From IMG/VR virus record IMGVR_UViG_3300002223_000006, positions 1-37,061 of that record: a DNA stretch of 37,061 nucleotides, one strand, 5' to 3'. The notes under the pieces are model-generated. The model was not told the origin of the DNA and made no database searches. It saw only the letters and a list, made by a program, of their open reading frames with translations. Shown here one piece after another: positions 8,146 through 34,335 of the stretch; within the stretch, counting starts at the first letter, position 1; each line of letters opens with the position of its first letter. The translations under genes and the position numbers were made by a program. This stretch comes from a virus.

Positions 8146-8195
8146 GTTCGACGTAAGAAGGCCGTTTGGTTGATTAACAGAAAAATTCAACTAAA

Positions 8196-9881
8196 TTGGC
8201 AAATACAGTTGTATAAACATTATGTACAACTAAAATCCTCTCTGATCGGCTTGAAACCCCAATTATGGGCAACAAGGCGGAAGGCAACAGCCACCGTGAG
8301 AGACTAAGTGAGAGGACGCTGAAATGTATTACGCCAAAAAATAAATTTAGACTAATCCTCTAATTTACAGCGATGCGATAGTCCGAACACCAGCTATATA
8401 TAAAACTGGTGAGATAAGCAGAAATGACTTATCTGTACATTGAAAAATAGTTGTACATATAATAGTTTGTTGGTATAATAGAATATATGACAATGCCAAC
8501 AGATTCAAAATATACAGAGATTTATAGAAAACGTCTTAGTGAATCTTTGAAGGGTAAAAGAGCTTCTGAAGAAACTAAAAGAATACAATCCGAAGCTAAA
8601 ATGAGTCCTAACAAATCTAAAAAAAGGGTTCATAAATATAGTTCAAAAGAATATCAAAGAAACAAAGAAAAATATCTTGAAAGACAAAGGCGTTATAGAG
8701 AAAATCCTGAAAAAAGAGCAGAATACCTTAGAAAACAAAGAGAACGAAGCAGGAGATGGTATCTGGAAAATAAAGAAAAGCGAATTGCTTATAATAAAAA
8801 ATGGTGGAATAAGCGCGTTGCTTCTTTAGAAACAGAAGTTGGAAGAAAAAAACCAGACGAATGTGAGGTTTGCAAGAAAAAAGGAAGAATTTGTTTTGAC
8901 CATGATCATAAAACAGGAAAATTCCGAGGATGGATATGTCATAGATGTAATTCTGTCTTAGGAATGATTGAAGATGACCAAAGTATTCTAAAAGCTCTCA
9001 ACAACTATCTTGACAATGTTACATAACAATGGGATAATAAACACGACTACGTTACCAAACTTCGTCAACGCTTAAATAAGCCGACAAATTGGATGGACGT
9101 GATGAATGTCATTTACTCGGACGTGAGAACGCGGGTAAATTCGTACATTTCCACTGAACCTTCAGTTGTTTCGGGAACTCGCGGAACAGCTTACAACTAC
9201 GAAGATTTTGTTCTGACAGCCGATACGCTGACTATTTCCACTTACAAGAATATCCCTATATTCATTGATGAAGCGGACAGACACCAGCAAGCTTATTTCG
9301 GTTCACCCGAAATAGCCGACTTTCAGGGCAAAAAAATCAACGAGAAAGTTGAAAGCGCAACCTTGGCCGAACACGCGAGCTGGAAGGATTTTGGACAGGG
9401 CGACTTGGACAATACTTCCGCTAACGACACGACCCAGATTACCGTTTCCGCTACCAACATTGACGACTTGGTAAGAGCCAACAAAAGAAAACTCTACGCG
9501 AACAACTGCGTGGACGCGGCCGTGGAAAACGGCGTTTTCTTCATTTGGCGTGCGGCTGACTACGAGTTTCTTGAGGCATTTGTACAGGCAAATGGCTTCA
9601 ACGAAGCTGACGTTGCCCTTAAAAACGGCGTTCCGGTTGGAATGCGTTATTTGGGCGCGTACCACTATCTCTCGACTTCTCACACCGCGAATCACTTATT
9701 CGCGGGCGTAAGGAGAAAAGGCGATTTGGGCATTCTCCGCTCTACCTACGGCAAAGCTAAATTTATTGAAGACCCAGCTAAATTGTCTGGACTTGGAATC
9801 GTGTCCCGCGTGGACTACGGTTTTTCATGGCCGACATCAGGCGACCTTCAGTACCTTTACGCCGACATTAACGTAGCTTAA
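8196..9881 (+). CDS. Major capsid protein, split by a group I intron (exons 8196-8214 and 9034-9881)
   Basis: The spliced product is 288 residues and begins MANTVVYNKHDYVTK. Exon 1 uses a TTG start at 8196 (no ATG exists between the upstream stop at 8175 and the splice site) and ends after the U at 8214. Exon 2 resumes at 9034. The junction is set by the intron's own P1 and P10 pairings (see intron). Unspliced RNA would stop at TAA 8214-8216. The body has the N-terminal LRQRLNKPTNW, an ISTYKNIPIFIDEADRHQ segment and a beta-rich C-terminus, with size and position of an HK97-fold coat protein. A shorter ATG start at 9093 in exon 2 would lose conserved N-terminal residues. No clear Shine-Dalgarno precedes the TTG. 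Confidence 0.82.
8451..8479 (+). promoter_or_regulatory. Promoter of the intron endonuclease
   Basis: TTGTAC (8451-8456), a 17-nt spacer and TATAAT (8474-8479) make a good sigma-70-like promoter. The ATG at 8487 lies 7 nt after the -10 box, right where transcription should begin, so the endonuclease message is probably leaderless. It is the clearest promoter in the window. Confidence 0.65.
8487..9026 (+). CDS. Intron-encoded endonuclease, endonuclease VII/HNH-like
   Basis: This 179-residue protein lies within the intron and ends 7 nt before its 3' splice site. The N-terminus has NUMOD3-like DNA-binding wording (YRKRLSESLKGKRASEETKR), then long basic Arg/Lys-rich helices. The C-terminal domain reads CEVCKKKGRICFDHDHKTGK and continues to CHRCNSVLG, the zinc-bound His-Me finger of the recombination endonuclease VII family (DHDH catalytic core, CxxC pairs). 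It should cut intronless capsid genes to spread the intron. It has its own promoter and, unlike the spliced gene, probably leaderless translation. Codon usage is AT-richer than the flanking exons, in line with separate origin. Confidence 0.88.
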   Translation: MTMPTDSKYTEIYRKRLSESLKGKRASEETKRIQSEAKMSPNKSKKRVHKYSSKEYQRNKEKYLERQRRYRENPEKRAEYLRKQRERSRRWYLENKEKRIAYNKKWWNKRVASLETEVGRKKPDECEVCKKKGRICFDHDHKTGKFRGWICHRCNSVLGMIEDDQSILKALNNYLDNVT

Positions 9882-25554: not shown

Positions 25555-26158
25555 GAAAAAATTTATATTCGCACTAGCGACAGCTGAATTTTTATTTAGT
25601 TATGGAACTGCCCTCGCTAAAGGCGACATCTTGTTTCAAGAATTTCAAGTTGGCGGCCAACCCGTTCTATCGGAAATAAAGATTGAATCCCTTGAACACT
25701 CCAAAGAAAGGCCAAAATATGTTTGGCGTTATTTCCTATTAGCTCCGGGTGAATATTACCTCTCCCAAGTCTTGACTGAAGCTCTCTTTTGGAAGCCTAA
25801 AGAAGTGAAGGCTGATCAGCTCTCGATACCGGAAGCTGTAAAAAATTACGCTTCAGCCGTCATAAATACATATCAGCTCAATCCCGAGATGTATCATTTT
25901 GTGGTTTCGGGAGAGTCTGGATACAACCCTAATGCTGTGGGCGACAATGGGAAAGCGCGTAACGTCATGCAGTATTGGGAGAAAACTTTTTTGCGTCATC
26001 GAGAAAGGGCTGGGATGTTAGAGGCTAAGTATAACGATTGGCGCAGTCAATTAAACGTGTCAGCGTGGATTTTTAAAAATGGCACCGAGCAGGAAAGGAG
26101 AGAATGGACTTGTTATCGTCGTTTCGTCGCCGGGTGGAAAACTTGTCAAAAATTTTAA
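25550..26158 (+). CDS. Secreted lytic transglycosylase-like protein, ATT start
   Basis: In frame from 25550 the product is 202 residues. It begins with an excellent signal peptide: KKKFIFALATAEFLFSYGTALA, cleavage before KGDILF. No ATG, GTG or TTG exists before it in frame, but an ATT at 25550 overlaps the holin stop (ATTAA), suggesting a coupled AUU start. A TTG at 25631 would give a 175-residue protein without the signal. The C-terminal domain has Glu122 in VVSGESGYNPNAVGDNGKARNVMQYW, a lysozyme/SLT-like catalytic region, and Cys near the end. The signal makes an export-dependent lysin likely. Confidence 0.65.
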   Translation: MKKKFIFALATAEFLFSYGTALAKGDILFQEFQVGGQPVLSEIKIESLEHSKERPKYVWRYFLLAPGEYYLSQVLTEALFWKPKEVKADQLSIPEAVKNYASAVINTYQLNPEMYHFVVSGESGYNPNAVGDNGKARNVMQYWEKTFLRHRERAGMLEAKYNDWRSQLNVSAWIFKNGTEQERREWTCYRRFVAGWKTCQKF

Positions 26159-26161
26159 TAC

Positions 26162-26184
26162 GCGGGGTTTCGACCCGACCCCGC
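26162..26184 (+). terminator. GC-rich hairpin after the lysis cassette
   Basis: GCGGGGT (26162-26168) pairs with ACCCCGC (26178-26184). An inner alternative GGGT/ACCC is possible. No U-run follows, so it is likely part of a two-hairpin end together with the terminator at 26221. Confidence 0.5.
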
Positions 26185-26220
26185 AGGAGTCCGAATAAGG
26201 CTCCAGTAAATTAACTAATT

Positions 26221-26250
26221 AGCCTTCCGATATGGAAGGCTTTTAGTTTT
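26221..26250 (+). terminator. Rho-independent terminator
   Basis: AGCCTTCC, a 5-nt GATAT loop and GGAAGGCT form an 8-bp perfect stem followed by TTTAGTTTT. This is the strongest terminator in the window and closes the late operon after the secreted transglycosylase. Confidence 0.85.
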
Positions 26251-26254
26251 CCAC

Positions 26255-26263
26255 TTTTCCACA
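26255..26263 (+). promoter_or_regulatory. DnaA-box-like site
   Basis: TTTTCCACA fits the consensus TTWTNCACA and a near-match (TTTTCCACT) lies just upstream at 26247. Similar sites are at 3178, 27511 and 32957. Confidence 0.35.
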
Positions 26264-26294
26264 AGATATATTTCTATAAAGTTTTAAAATTAAA

Positions 26295-26465
26295 TAAGAA
26301 CTCTTACACCTGCTGGCGACGGACAAGTTTGTTTTTCATAGTTTTTTGATTTCTTGTCCCCTCGACCTTGTCGCCGGCGGGTTTGAGAGCTTTAAGAAGG
26401 GTAGCCAGCCCCCAATGTAGCACATGTGTATCAGAAAGGGCGGGCTATCATTCTGAGAGTTCTTA
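26295..26465 (+). ncRNA. Large multibranched structured RNA, unknown class
   Basis: This region between the terminator and the next ORF folds by eye into a closed multibranch. The outer stem TAAGAACTCT (26295-26304) pairs perfectly with AGAGTTCTTA (26456-26465). The first branch pairs 26312-26320 with 26370-26378 and 26321-26327 with 26353-26359, with a 10-nt bulge. The second branch pairs 26402-26411 with 26438-26447 (nine pairs and one mismatch). The sequence is far GC-richer than its surroundings and has no ORF. It sits directly upstream of a well-marked start (GGAGG before ATG 26487), so it may be a leader RNA or independent small RNA. I do not recognise the class. Confidence 0.7.
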
Positions 26466-26486
26466 AAAAGAGAGGAGGACGAACCA

Positions 26487-26561
26487 ATGGATGAAATAAC
26501 TATTTTGATATATCTCATCGGCGTAATATCGGGGCTCATCTTGTTTGGAGGCGACCTATGA
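26487..26561 (+). CDS. Tiny single-span membrane protein
   Basis: This 24-residue peptide is mostly one hydrophobic helix (MDEITILIYLIGVISGLILF, ending GGDL). It has one of the best Shine-Dalgarno sites in the window (GAGGAGG, 8 nt before ATG) and its stop overlaps the next start (ATGA). It follows the structured RNA. The strong initiation signal makes it likely real; function unknown. Confidence 0.65.
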   Translation: MDEITILIYLIGVISGLILFGGDL

Positions 26562-26776
26562 GCAAAAGAAATAAGAAGTTTCTGACTCGCCATCACATCA
26601 AGAACAAGACCTACGGAGGAAACGGGGATGTCTGGAACATTCTCCGGCTCCGGCGAGATAGGCACGATGTCTGGCATCTGCTCTTTCGTAACCTCGACTT
26701 AGAGGGTGCAATCAGACTGCTGGAACGGGTCAATCGGATCAAGTCCGAACAGAGGAGGCGTGAATGGAATCTCTAA
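26558..26776 (+). CDS. Small HNH-like protein
   Basis: This 72-residue protein has RHHIKNKTYGGNGDVWNILRL and RRDRHDVWHLLFRNLDLEGAIRLLERV, a compact HHxxN..GG..N...L....H..WH pattern of tiny His-Me-finger proteins seen in Patescibacteria and their phages. Cysteines are absent, unlike zinc-bound HNH enzymes. It could be a nickase or an RNA/DNA-binding remnant. It starts at the 4-nt overlap with the membrane peptide. Confidence 0.65.
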   Translation: MSKRNKKFLTRHHIKNKTYGGNGDVWNILRLRRDRHDVWHLLFRNLDLEGAIRLLERVNRIKSEQRRREWNL

Positions 26777-26868
26777 AAGACTGGTTTGAATGGTACTGGG
26801 TGGAAATAAAAGTGCGTTACGAAAGCTGGAAAAGTCGAAGGAGAAAACGCCATGTCGCGCGCAGATAG
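26764..26868 (+). CDS. Small aromatic/basic peptide
   Basis: This 34-residue product (MESLKDWFEWYWVEIKVRY, then ESWKSRRRKRHVARR) has an aromatic amphipathic half and a strongly basic tail. It overlaps genes on both sides. It could bind membrane or nucleic acid; nothing identifies it. Confidence 0.45.
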   Translation: MESLKDWFEWYWVEIKVRYESWKSRRRKRHVARR

Positions 26869-27043
26869 AAAGTGCCAGTGGTGCGGACATACGGTTTGTC
26901 CTTCTTGTTTGGACTACGCTCCGTATGATTGGATTCGGTGTTGCGAGTGCAACCGTTGCATCGGGAAAGGAGATGCAGATGGCCTACACCCACTTTCTGA
27001 AATACATCGCGGACGTTCTCATTCACACGAGGACGGAAGCTAA
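26852..27043 (+). CDS. Zinc-binding protein with multiple CxxC motifs
   Basis: This 63-residue protein follows a good Shine-Dalgarno (AAGGAG, about 7 nt before ATG). It has CQWCGHTVCPSC (8-19) and CCECNRC (30-36), two or three zinc-binding knuckles, then a His-rich end. Likely a small zinc finger or adapter that binds nucleic acid or a host protein. It overlaps the genes before and after in different frames. Confidence 0.6.
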   Translation: MSRADRKCQWCGHTVCPSCLDYAPYDWIRCCECNRCIGKGDADGLHPLSEIHRGRSHSHEDGS

Positions 27044-27236
27044 GTCAGACGGCTGGAAGATGGTTTCAGACCACGGAGTGGTAACGCTCCAATGCCAGAA
27101 GTGCAACGCTTCTCTGAAACTCACCCTTCAAAGCAAAGATGAAGCCATCCTGCACCGGAAGCTTTGCATAGACGCAAACAAGAAAAGACGAATCCGCCCC
27201 GCCGAAACCGTCAGCCGATGGTTCGAACTCCGCTAA
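26979..27236 (+). CDS. Small zinc-knuckle protein
   Basis: This 85-residue protein starts at the ATG 6 nt after AAGGAG (another in-frame ATG is at 26973). Residues 41-44 are CQKC followed by NASLKLTLQSKDEAILHRKLC, giving a possible Cys/His zinc site. The C-terminus is basic (ANKKRRIRPAETVSRWFELR). This and the preceding three genes are more GC-rich than the rest of the genome, so the block may have come in together. Confidence 0.6.
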   Translation: MAYTHFLKYIADVLIHTRTEAKSDGWKMVSDHGVVTLQCQKCNASLKLTLQSKDEAILHRKLCIDANKKRRIRPAETVSRWFELR

Positions 27237-27250
27237 TAGACCTGCCAAAA

Positions 27251-27315
27251 GAAGGTGCGCTTTCCTCATGTGGAATCAACGCACCTTCGCCATTTATGCC
27301 CTACGGGGCTTTTTT
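27251..27315 (+). terminator. Hairpin plus short intrinsic terminator
   Basis: GAAGGTGCG (27251-27259) pairs perfectly with CGCACCTTC (27280-27288). It is followed by GCCC-TACG-GGGC (27298-27309) and TTTTTT (27310-27315). The second hairpin with its U-run is a compact terminator that ends the small-gene block. Confidence 0.7.
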
Positions 27316-29217: not shown

Positions 29218-29928
29218 ATGGCGAATCCAAAACGGCAACTCATCGTTTCTACTCCGGTGTCTCTGATGACACCGGTAGTGATGAAACAGCAGTTAGAGGT
29301 TGAGAGTCAAAAACGTAAGCTACTCACTGAATATATCAACCGGCACATGAAGAAGGGCATTGATTATGGACAGATTGAAATCGTGAGCAAGCGGACTGGG
29401 AAAACCTACGTTTCAAAGCCCACGCTTTTTAAGCCAGGTGCGGAGAAATTTTGCTCCTTGTTCCGTATCCGGGCTGAGTATTCCAAGGATGATGAAACTT
29501 GGGAAATGTTAGGACGAGAATCTAAATACATTTGCTATATATGCCGCCTCTATAACGGCGAGATACTTGTCGGCGAGGGGCGAGGTGTCTGTACGGTCGC
29601 GGAGAAAGACGGGTCGGCAAATAACGCCGTGAAGATAGCCAAGAAGCGCGCCAAGTTGGATGCGGTTTTAGAAACCGGAGGATTGTCTGAATTTTTTACT
29701 CAGGACCTAGAGGACGAAATCGATCCAATGCCAGCTCGTAAGAAGACTCAAAACGTCTTTCAGGAAGCCGAACGAATGATCACTGCCTCAAAATTGATTG
29801 ATAATCTGCTTACCATTGGCGACCGCATTATCGCTTCTGAAAAATTTACGCCCGACCAAAAGGGGAAATTACAGGCCAAAATAACTGCCCGCCTTGATGA
29901 ACTCGAAGCCGAGGCCAAAGCAAAATAG
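29218..29928 (+). CDS. Single-strand annealing protein (probable)
   Basis: This 236-residue protein has HMKKGIDYGQIEIVSKRTGK followed by KPTLFKPGAEKFCSLFRI, a motif common in a family of phage annealing or recombination proteins. It also has beta segments with YICRLYNGEILVGEGRGVCT and NNAVKIAKKRAKLDAVLETGG. The C-terminus is helical and charged (LIDNLLTIGDRIIAS). It would coat and anneal ssDNA during replication. It overlaps the nuclease gene by 32 nt. Assignment is by motif and context. Confidence 0.6.
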   Translation: MANPKRQLIVSTPVSLMTPVVMKQQLEVESQKRKLLTEYINRHMKKGIDYGQIEIVSKRTGKTYVSKPTLFKPGAEKFCSLFRIRAEYSKDDETWEMLGRESKYICYICRLYNGEILVGEGRGVCTVAEKDGSANNAVKIAKKRAKLDAVLETGGLSEFFTQDLEDEIDPMPARKKTQNVFQEAERMITASKLIDNLLTIGDRIIASEKFTPDQKGKLQAKITARLDELEAEAKAK

Positions 29929-32956: not shown

Positions 32957-32992
32957 TTATCCACACCCCCCTCACGAACAATCAAGTATAAT
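32957..32992 (+). promoter_or_regulatory. DnaA box and -10 box before the SANT-like gene
   Basis: TTATCCACA (32957-32965) is a perfect DnaA box. TATAAT at 32987-32992 lies 6 nt before the ATG at 32999, so a transcript from it would be leaderless or nearly so. The CCCCCCTCA between them also occurs in the duplicated leaders at 34840, 35131 and 35938. No clear -35 box. Confidence 0.5.
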
Positions 32993-33267: not shown

Positions 33268-34335
33268 ATGAAAGCATACAAAATATTTGACCATAACTGG
33301 AAGTGTAAAGATTTTCAGTTTGAAGTGGGGAAAGAGTACACCTATGAAGGAAAGCTCGAAATCTGCGAAAGCGGATTTCATGCTTGTTTAAAATTGGAAG
33401 ATTGCTTCAAGTATTACAAAGCAGTTTCTTGGAACAAGATTGCAGAGGTTGAGATATTGGGAAAAAGTATAACTCACGATGAAGACAGCAAAATTGTAAC
33501 CGATAAAATTAAAATTGTAAGAGAAATAGGATGGCAAGAACTCGAAGAAGTTTATAACGACATCTATGGAGCCAGCAACATCAGTGGAGGAAACAACATC
33601 TGGGGAGCCAGCAACATCAGTGGAGGAAGCAACATCCGTGGAGGAAACTATATCTATGGAGCCAGCAACATCAGGGGAGGAAACAACATCAATGGAGGAA
33701 ACTACATCAATGGAGGAAGCAACATCCGTGGAGGAAGCTATATCTGGGGAGCCAGCAACATCAGGGGAGGAAACTACATCAATGGAGGAAACTACATCAG
33801 TGGAGGAAATGACATCAGTGGAGGAAATGACATCAGTGGAGGAAATGACATCAGTGGAGGAAATGACATCTGGGGAGGAAACTACATCAGTGGAGGAAAT
33901 GACATCAGGGGAGGAAACTACATCAGGGGAGGAAATTACATCAGGGGAGGAAATGACATCTGGGGAGCTAAGAATTGTTATGGAGTAGATTCAGCAATCT
34001 TTATCGCAAACAAAAAAAGACAACCGACTATCTTCGGGAAGAAAGTTACACAAAAAAGATTTGATGAGGTATTTCAAAAACTCAATTCTTTCAACTGGTA
34101 TCCGAAATTCAATAATGCTTTTGATTTTTATTTACAGAAAGGGAACGACTGGGAAAAAGTTCCGGCAGATTTAATCGCGCCAAAAACCAATAAAGAGGCG
34201 TGGGCGGATATTCCTGTCCCTATGAAAAATTATATTTCTTCTTTAAAAGAATACGATAAAAAGACTTTTAAAGAAATCACCGAAATTGATTTGCCAAAAA
34301 ACTCAAATTTGATTTTTTTTCTAAAGATGAGATGA
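33268..34335 (+). CDS. DUF7666-like protein with 23 hexapeptide repeats
   Basis: This 355-residue protein has three parts. Residues 1-90 (YKIFDHNWKCKDFQFEVGKEYTYEGKLEICESGFHACLKLEDCFKYY) resemble a domain common in phage proteins, DUF7666-like. Residues 99-236 are 23 hexads of form I-x-G-(G/A)-(N/S)-x, such as ISGGND and IRGGNY, probably a beta-solenoid. Residues 237-355 form a helical C-terminal domain. The central DNA is made of 18-bp repeats and is open in a second frame too. Proteins of this plan are often found in phages of uncultivated bacteria; role unknown, perhaps a DNA-mimic or binding scaffold. Confidence 0.75.
   Translation: MKAYKIFDHNWKCKDFQFEVGKEYTYEGKLEICESGFHACLKLEDCFKYYKAVSWNKIAEVEILGKSITHDEDSKIVTDKIKIVREIGWQELEEVYNDIYGASNISGGNNIWGASNISGGSNIRGGNYIYGASNIRGGNNINGGNYINGGSNIRGGSYIWGASNIRGGNYINGGNYISGGNDISGGNDISGGNDISGGNDIWGGNYISGGNDIRGGNYIRGGNYIRGGNDIWGAKNCYGVDSAIFIANKKRQPTIFGKKVTQKRFDEVFQKLNSFNWYPKFNNAFDFYLQKGNDWEKVPADLIAPKTNKEAWADIPVPMKNYISSLKEYDKKTFKEITEIDLPKNSNLIFFLKMR
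33562..33975 (+). repeat. Tandem array of 18-bp repeats
   Basis: There are 23 units of ATC-nnn-GGA-(GGA/GCC)-(AAC/AGC/AAT)-nnn. Two codons per unit vary freely (AGT, AGG, CGT, AAT, TGG, TAT in the first; AAC, TAC, GAC, TAT in the last). Four consecutive units at about 33800-33870 are identical (AGT and GAC), a sign of recent expansion. Confidence 0.95.

What the first reader, a model, noticed from the sequence alone, without database searches (positions are those of the whole stretch)
26295..26465. Unrecognised 171-nt multibranched RNA after the late terminator
Three independent sets of long-range complementary arms nest into a closed multibranch, in a GC-rich island with no ORF, ending just before the best Shine-Dalgarno in the genome. 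It could be a phage non-coding RNA or a cis leader for the tiny membrane protein at 26487. Strongest candidate for an undescribed RNA class here.
Basis: partly seen in the sequence, partly recalled or inferred. Interest (0 to 1): 0.8.

Follow-up and report, generated by a model that had tools for sequence, protein, structure and literature searches.

The report
Structured leader RNA of phage operon
Just after the late-gene terminator, an uncultured phage carries an unusually stable pair of back-to-back RNA hairpins that most likely form the start of the messenger RNA for a small operon, the only one in this phage with strong ribosome-binding sites; no known RNA family matches it and nobody has shown what it does.

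Summary
The structure is real, but its shape is not quite as drawn. Window 26295-26465 folds far better than shuffles on the + strand (z about -6, none of 600 as good) and less so on the - strand (z -3.7). It is the most unusual fold of the + strand. The best fold is two flush hairpins, 26308-26382 and 26383-26466. The proposed closing helix 26295-26304/26456-26465 is possible but about 4 kcal/mol worse (probability about 0.001). Rfam has no match, and no sequence relative was found in phages, plasmids or the relatives fetched.

The setting points to a 5' leader. A late terminator and promoter-like boxes lie upstream; hairpin 2 ends seven bases before an AGGAGG. That site opens a five-gene operon (24-aa peptide, HNH protein, 34-aa protein, two zinc-ribbon-like proteins) whose five starts have the five strongest Shine-Dalgarno sequences of a genome otherwise almost without them. 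The HNH gene shows the same contrast in related phages. In one related group, strongly folded hairpin arrays of unrelated sequence sit at the same place; in three others there is none.

Most likely it is a cis-acting mRNA leader (stabilising or processing site), not an established new RNA class. Covariation could not be tested: no homologue was found.

The parts
26221..26245 (+). intrinsic terminator at the end of the late gene block (AGCCTTCC-GATAT-GGAAGGCT then TTTAG)
   Evidence: 9 pairs, 5 GC; region 26159-26250 z -6.0
26247..26263 (+). two tandem TTTTCCAC boxes (the second TTTTCCACA, DnaA-box-like). All six + strand TTWTCCAC in the genome are intergenic (intergenic = 6.6% of the genome)
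26275..26290 (+). -10-like sequences TATAAA (26275-26280) and TAAAAT (26285-26290); would start the transcript at about 26287-26297
   Evidence: read from sequence; inference, no transcript data
26295..26304 (+). 5' arm TAAGAACTCT; perfect complement of 26456-26465 but hardly paired to it in the ensemble
26308..26382 (+). hairpin H1: 13 bp plus 7 bp stem, 10-nt one-sided internal loop, U-rich apical loop
   Evidence: z -5.6 on + against -3.2 on -
26383..26466 (+). hairpin H2: stem of 11+4+7+4 pairs broken by single mismatches, apical part less certain; abuts H1
   Evidence: z -6.0 on + against -2.1 on -
26473..26478 (+). Shine-Dalgarno AGGAGG, 8 nt before the ATG; joint strongest of the genome
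26487..26561 (+). 24-aa hydrophobic peptide MDEITILIYLIGVISGLILFGGDL; stop overlaps the next start (ATGA)
26558..26776 (+). 72-aa HNH-like protein
   Evidence: weak PHROG HNH match; relatives in L019, L042-L046, L052, L054
26764..26868 (+). 34-aa basic small protein, strong Shine-Dalgarno (-12.0)
26852..27043 (+). 63-aa zinc-ribbon-like protein (CQWC...CPSC...CCEC)
26979..27236 (+). 85-aa protein with a CxxC motif, last gene of the operon
27298..27315 (+). terminator-like GCCC-TACG-GGGC then TTTTTT at the end of the operon
   Evidence: read from sequence

Best explanation
It is the structured 5' untranslated leader of a short operon (24-aa peptide, HNH protein, 34-aa protein, two zinc-ribbon-like proteins). 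Transcription starts just upstream, beside the TTTTCCAC boxes. The leader folds as it is made into two flush, probably stacked hairpins that end directly before the Shine-Dalgarno (SD) site. The hairpins block 5'-end decay or are trimmed by a double-strand-specific RNase, and keep the start region open, so this operon gets a long-lived mRNA translated by classical SD pairing, unlike the rest of the phage's genes. Shown: the fold, its strand bias, the context, and the SD contrast in several phage groups. Inferred: the transcription start, leader status, the stabilising or processing role, and the stacking.
For: Fold beyond shuffles and stronger on the + strand. Terminator upstream; TTWTCCAC boxes on the + strand only in intergenic sequence. 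No U-run after either hairpin, so no attenuator. The AGGAGG is mostly to partly unpaired in the ensemble (0.13-0.68 per base for 26474-26478, rising to 1.0 at 26479). The five operon starts have the five strongest SDs among 61 starts; 51 other genes have median -1.8 and best -7.9 kcal/mol. HNH genes of G005, G012, G013 and L052 also have strong SDs (-9.5 to -11.6). In the G012/G013 group the same gap holds hairpin arrays with z -5.0 and -5.6 on the + strand; strand bias is clear in G013 (-2.3 on -) and slight in G012 (-4.2 on -).
Against: No transcript data. Part of the SD and the bases before it pair weakly with 26301-26305 in about half of the ensemble, so the start region is not fully open. 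The hairpin sequences are not shared with any relative; G005 and L054 have the HNH gene without a folded leader and L052 has only a terminator-like hairpin, so the leader is dispensable in general. H1 and H2 could equally be an independent RNA. Some small-gene starts were chosen by me partly by their SD.
Confidence: 0.55

Rival explanations
1. A free-standing phage non-coding RNA that acts in trans and merely lies before the operon.
For: Very stable self-contained fold, no ORF, own promoter-like boxes. In L054 the corresponding gap carries another RNA gene, a tRNA-Phe.
Against: No terminator between the RNA and the SD; hairpin 2 ends seven bases before the SD; no homologue found.
Confidence: 0.2
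2. A switch: three similar arms (26295-26304, 26384-26398, 26451-26466) compete, and in one state the SD region is covered (26301-26305 with 26470-26474, or the CCUC in the H1 internal loop with GAGG of the SD), so a ligand, protein or ribosome state sets translation.
For: The 5' arm is a perfect 10-nt complement of the 3' arm; 5-bp helix beside the SD at probability about 0.45; possible 4-bp contact of the H1 internal loop with the SD (-6.4 kcal/mol as a bare duplex).
Against: One main conformer dominates (26384-26392/26457-26465 near 1) and persists from 10 to 45 C; four-base complementarities are common by chance; no conserved pocket can be tested without homologues.
Confidence: 0.12
3. A put-like RNA antiterminator: two tandem stem-loops at the start of a transcript bind RNA polymerase and let it pass downstream terminators.
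For: Two abutting stem-loops close to a putative promoter, as in HK022 putL (PMC9378689); a terminator-like site lies at the end of the operon (27298-27315).
Against: put RNAs are about 70 nt (PMC9378689); this is about 160 nt. The operon is short and ends at the terminator; no evidence of read-through.
Confidence: 0.07
4. A DNA element: miniature transposon with terminal inverted repeats, replication origin or packaging site whose hairpins act as DNA.
For: Perfect 10-bp inverted repeats at the two ends; DnaA-box-like sequences and an AT-rich stretch directly upstream.
Against: Strand asymmetry (7 G-U pairs in H1/H2; z -6 against -3.7) points to RNA; one copy in the genome and none in the other sources searched with R1/R2; no match in plasmids or phages.
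Confidence: 0.06

Closest known systems
5' stem-loop mRNA stabilisers and RNase III processing sites of phage and bacterial mRNAs (T7 early mRNA sites, T4 gene 32 and ompA leaders; from my own knowledge)
   Same: Long hairpins at the 5' end of a message, directly before the ribosome-binding site; long imperfect stem
   Different: Two large flush hairpins; no cleavage or half-life data; no sequence relation
HK022 put RNA (PMC9378689)
   Same: Two tandem stem-loops just downstream of a promoter in a phage
   Different: About twice as long; no antitermination evidence; short operon that ends at a terminator
HEARO / OMEGA RNA beside HNH-type nucleases
   Same: Folded RNA near an HNH gene
   Different: No Rfam match; the protein is a 72-aa HNH-like protein, far smaller than the RuvC-containing IscB or IsrB (own knowledge)
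TIGR arrays of TIGR-Tas systems (PMC12045711)
   Same: Phage, tandem structured RNA, HNH gene near
   Different: No repeat-spacer pattern and no Nop-domain protein found
Retron msr-msd RNA
   Same: Inverted repeats that could close around folded stems
   Different: No reverse transcriptase found in the record; the closing repeats are not the favoured pairing
Strong-SD genes in SD-less genomes, e.g. rpsU of Bacteroidota (PMC9976891)
   Same: A few exceptionally strong SDs in a genome otherwise without them
   Different: A whole operon of small non-ribosomal phage genes; SDs reach -12, not below -13 kcal/mol (scored differently); host unknown; no bS21 gene found

Membership tests
Any Rfam 15 family | match above gathering score, or a convincing sub-threshold match | tested here: not met
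   none at threshold; the only weak match over the hairpins is a microRNA model at E 9.3
tRNA or tmRNA | ARAGORN model | tested here: not met
   none in the window
Intrinsic terminator or attenuator | GC-rich stem followed directly by a U-run | tested here: not met
   no U-run after H1 or H2; the scan lists no site in 26295-26480
HK022 put RNA | two adjacent stem-loops near a promoter | tested here: inconclusive
   two adjacent stem-loops are there; the promoter is only inferred
HK022 put RNA | about 70 nt long | tested here: not met
   H1 plus H2 span 159 nt against about 70 nt
HK022 put RNA | RNA polymerase binding and antitermination | not testable with these tools
   needs transcription assays
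HEARO / OMEGA RNA | match to the RNA family | tested here: not met
TIGR array | alternating 8-12-nt repeats with 9-nt spacers, or repeated stem-loop units | tested here: not met
   no such repeats at 26150-26600
TIGR array | Nop-domain Tas protein encoded nearby | tested here: not met
   PF01798 absent from 8 records, controls ring
Retron ncRNA | reverse transcriptase gene | tested here: not met
   PF00078 absent, controls ring
Retron ncRNA | end repeats that pair around the structure | tested here: inconclusive
   perfect 10-bp complement exists but is about 4 kcal/mol off the best fold
RNase III processing site or stabilising leader | long double-stranded stem at the 5' end of the mRNA | tested here: inconclusive
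   H2 has 26 outer pairs with single mismatches, but the transcript end is unknown
RNase III processing site or stabilising leader | cleavage or longer mRNA half-life | not testable with these tools
   needs RNA-seq or a reporter
Miniature inverted-repeat transposon | several copies or a movable insertion | tested here: not met
   single copy, no relatives found

The most novel reading that the evidence does not exclude
In several groups of uncultured phages whose genes are otherwise almost SD-less, one HNH/zinc-ribbon operon is reserved for SD-dependent translation. In some of them it carries a fast-evolving hairpin-array leader that sets when ribosomes with an exposed anti-SD may read it: a phage expression switch keyed to ribosome state, with a leader RNA conserved in architecture but not in sequence.
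Probability: 0.1. Interest if true: 0.75.

Novelty: new variant of a known kind. Interest (0 to 1): 0.42.

Why it matters
The fold alone would be one more orphan phage leader. What lifts it is the setting: it fronts the only operon with strong Shine-Dalgarno sites in a genome almost without them, the same contrast recurs at the HNH gene in related phages, and one related group has hairpin-array leaders at the same place. If the leader and the SD sites work together, this is a testable case of a phage giving one operon a translation regime of its own.

Tried and rejected
Rfam at gathering and relaxed thresholds and on the relatives' leaders: nothing convincing. DNA searches in phages and plasmids and an exact-pattern scan of viral contigs: nothing. 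Single-sequence covariance models of H1 and H2 over 33 sources (438 kb): only the window itself. Terminase relatives mostly do not reach this region; G005 does and has no folded leader there. Scans with the HNH protein alone, with 29218-29928 and with the upstream protease found no closer relative. Homology to the G012/G013 leaders: the only aligned piece is an AT-rich string, TTTTAAAATTAAATA (p 0.002 against shuffles), and similar strings precede several genes in that AT-rich virus; resemblances of hairpin-base motifs that I saw by eye did not come up in the alignment. I treat homology as unproven. A pattern scan with those motifs returned one hit besides G013, inside a coding region. TIGR array, retron and bS21 were tested and not met. 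Covariation in one hairpin shared by G012-G015: 3 distinct sequences, one compensatory pair, a value reached by 153 of 500 shuffles: uninformative. Bacteroidota-type promoter motif TAnnTTTG was not seen in the intergenic regions that matter, so no host inference.

Full report
WHAT WAS CHECKED. Window 26295-26465 folds at -69.3 kcal/mol; dinucleotide shuffles average about -45.5 and none of 600 comes near (best -58.1; z -5.98). The reverse strand is weaker (z -3.7), in line with 7 G-U pairs among the 54 pairs of the hairpins. A genome scan with 171-nt windows, corrected for GC, places windows over this region first, second and fourth on the + strand. This is the behaviour of an RNA rather than of a DNA palindrome.

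SHAPE. In the transcript-like stretch 26287-26486 the best fold is two flush hairpins, 26308-26382 and 26383-26466. The forced closed form is about 4 kcal/mol worse. Essentially the same fold holds from 10 to 45 C, so a thermometer is unlikely.

SURROUNDINGS. The window is a whole uncultured-virus record of 37 kb; the genes I can recognise are on the + strand. Upstream are a lysozyme-like gene (SLT domain) and the late terminator at 26221-26245. Then come two TTTTCCAC boxes. All six TTWTCCAC on the + strand of the genome are intergenic, although intergenic sequence is only 6.6%, so the boxes are probably regulatory. I infer that they belong to promoters, with -10-like TATAAA or TAAAAT placing the transcript start at about 26287-26297; the sigma-70 consensus scan listed no promoter there. 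Hairpin 2 ends at 26466, AGGAGG begins at 26473, and the ATG of a 24-aa hydrophobic peptide is at 26487. Its stop overlaps the start of a 72-aa HNH-like protein, followed by a 34-aa protein and two zinc-ribbon-like proteins; a terminator-like site follows at 27298-27315. No U-run follows either hairpin, so neither is an attenuator.

A STRONG-SD OPERON IN AN SD-POOR GENOME. Scoring pairing to the anti-SD for 61 starts, the five strongest are the five genes of this operon (-12.0, -12.0, -9.3, -8.8, -8.7). Fifty-one other genes, each given its best start, have median -1.8 and best -7.9 kcal/mol. The homology-defined HNH gene also has a strong SD in G005 (-9.5), G012 and G013 (-11.6; these two share the gene nearly letter for letter) and L052 (-10.0), against background medians of -0.6, 0.2, -0.9 and -5.5. 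Caveats: I chose some of the smaller operon starts partly by their SD, a few relatives' coordinates were off by one to three bases, and the G013 and L052 backgrounds are small. L054 is an exception, with little SD before its HNH start. This contrast is better supported than any claim about the hairpins' sequence.

RELATIVES. The HNH gene led to G012-G015, L052 and L054. In G012/G013 the gap before the same HNH gene holds large hairpins: three in G013 (z -5.6 on +, -2.3 on -) and a large multibranch in G012 (z -5.0 on +, -4.2 on -). Their sequences do not align with the window beyond an AT-rich string. One hairpin is shared between G013 (before HNH) and G012 (after the zinc-ribbon gene, which is shortened there), so the modules seem to move within that group. 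G005 has no such array; L052 has only a terminator-like hairpin there; L054 has a tRNA-Phe there. The locus attracts structured RNA but does not require it.

MECHANISM. The best reading is a 5' leader that stabilises the message or is trimmed, and leaves the SD mostly open. Rivals are an independent RNA, a switch among three similar arms, a put-like antiterminator, and a DNA element. HK022 put RNA also has two tandem stem-loops by a promoter but is about 70 nt (PMC9378689). Ribosomes of Bacteroidia sequester their anti-SD, and those lacking bS21 favour strong-SD mRNA (PMC9976891). If this phage's host is of that sort, the strong-SD operon could answer to ribosome state; this is speculation, as the host is unknown and no bS21 gene was found.

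VERDICT. A real, unclassified, strongly folded element, most likely the leader of an interesting operon. It is not yet an RNA class, because there are no homologues and hence no covariation.

Noticed in passing
window 26487-27236; L019 17842-18215; L042 1378-2180; L044 3801-4875; L052 2941-3406: A small operon (HNH protein plus mostly zinc-ribbon-like proteins) with strong Shine-Dalgarno sites in phages whose other genes mostly lack them, in four or five phage groups.
   Followed up: partly
window 3178, 26247, 26255, 27317, 27511, 32957: All six TTWTCCAC boxes on the + strand are intergenic and mostly follow gene ends or terminators; they look like DnaA boxes or a phage promoter element. After the one at 32957 a TATAAT follows with the ATG about 6 bases behind it, as for a leaderless gene.
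   Followed up: partly
L044 3410-3800 and L042 1104-1350, 1717-1832: Hairpin arrays with long outer stems before the HNH operon; one hairpin module occurs at different places in the two viruses, and the zinc-ribbon gene is shortened where it sits in L042.
   Followed up: partly
window 8146-9026: A 340-nt non-coding gap with sequences reminiscent of a group I intron core (GAGAGACTAAGT ... GCGATAGTCCGAAC), followed by an endonuclease VII gene (PF02945, E 3e-15). Rfam gave no match up to E 0.5, so an intron with its endonuclease is only a guess.
   Followed up: partly
window 33556-33967: Eighteen- and 90-base tandem repeats inside the DUF7666 protein gene, about 21 copies of an 18-base unit.
   Followed up: no
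L054 2798-2870: A tRNA-Phe gene between the lysozyme-like gene and the HNH gene, where the window has the folded RNA.
   Followed up: no
window 34873, 35161, 35968: Near-identical upstream sequences (AAAGGAGTATAATTAAGGAAA) before several small genes near the right end, perhaps a repeated promoter or ribosome-binding cassette.
   Followed up: no
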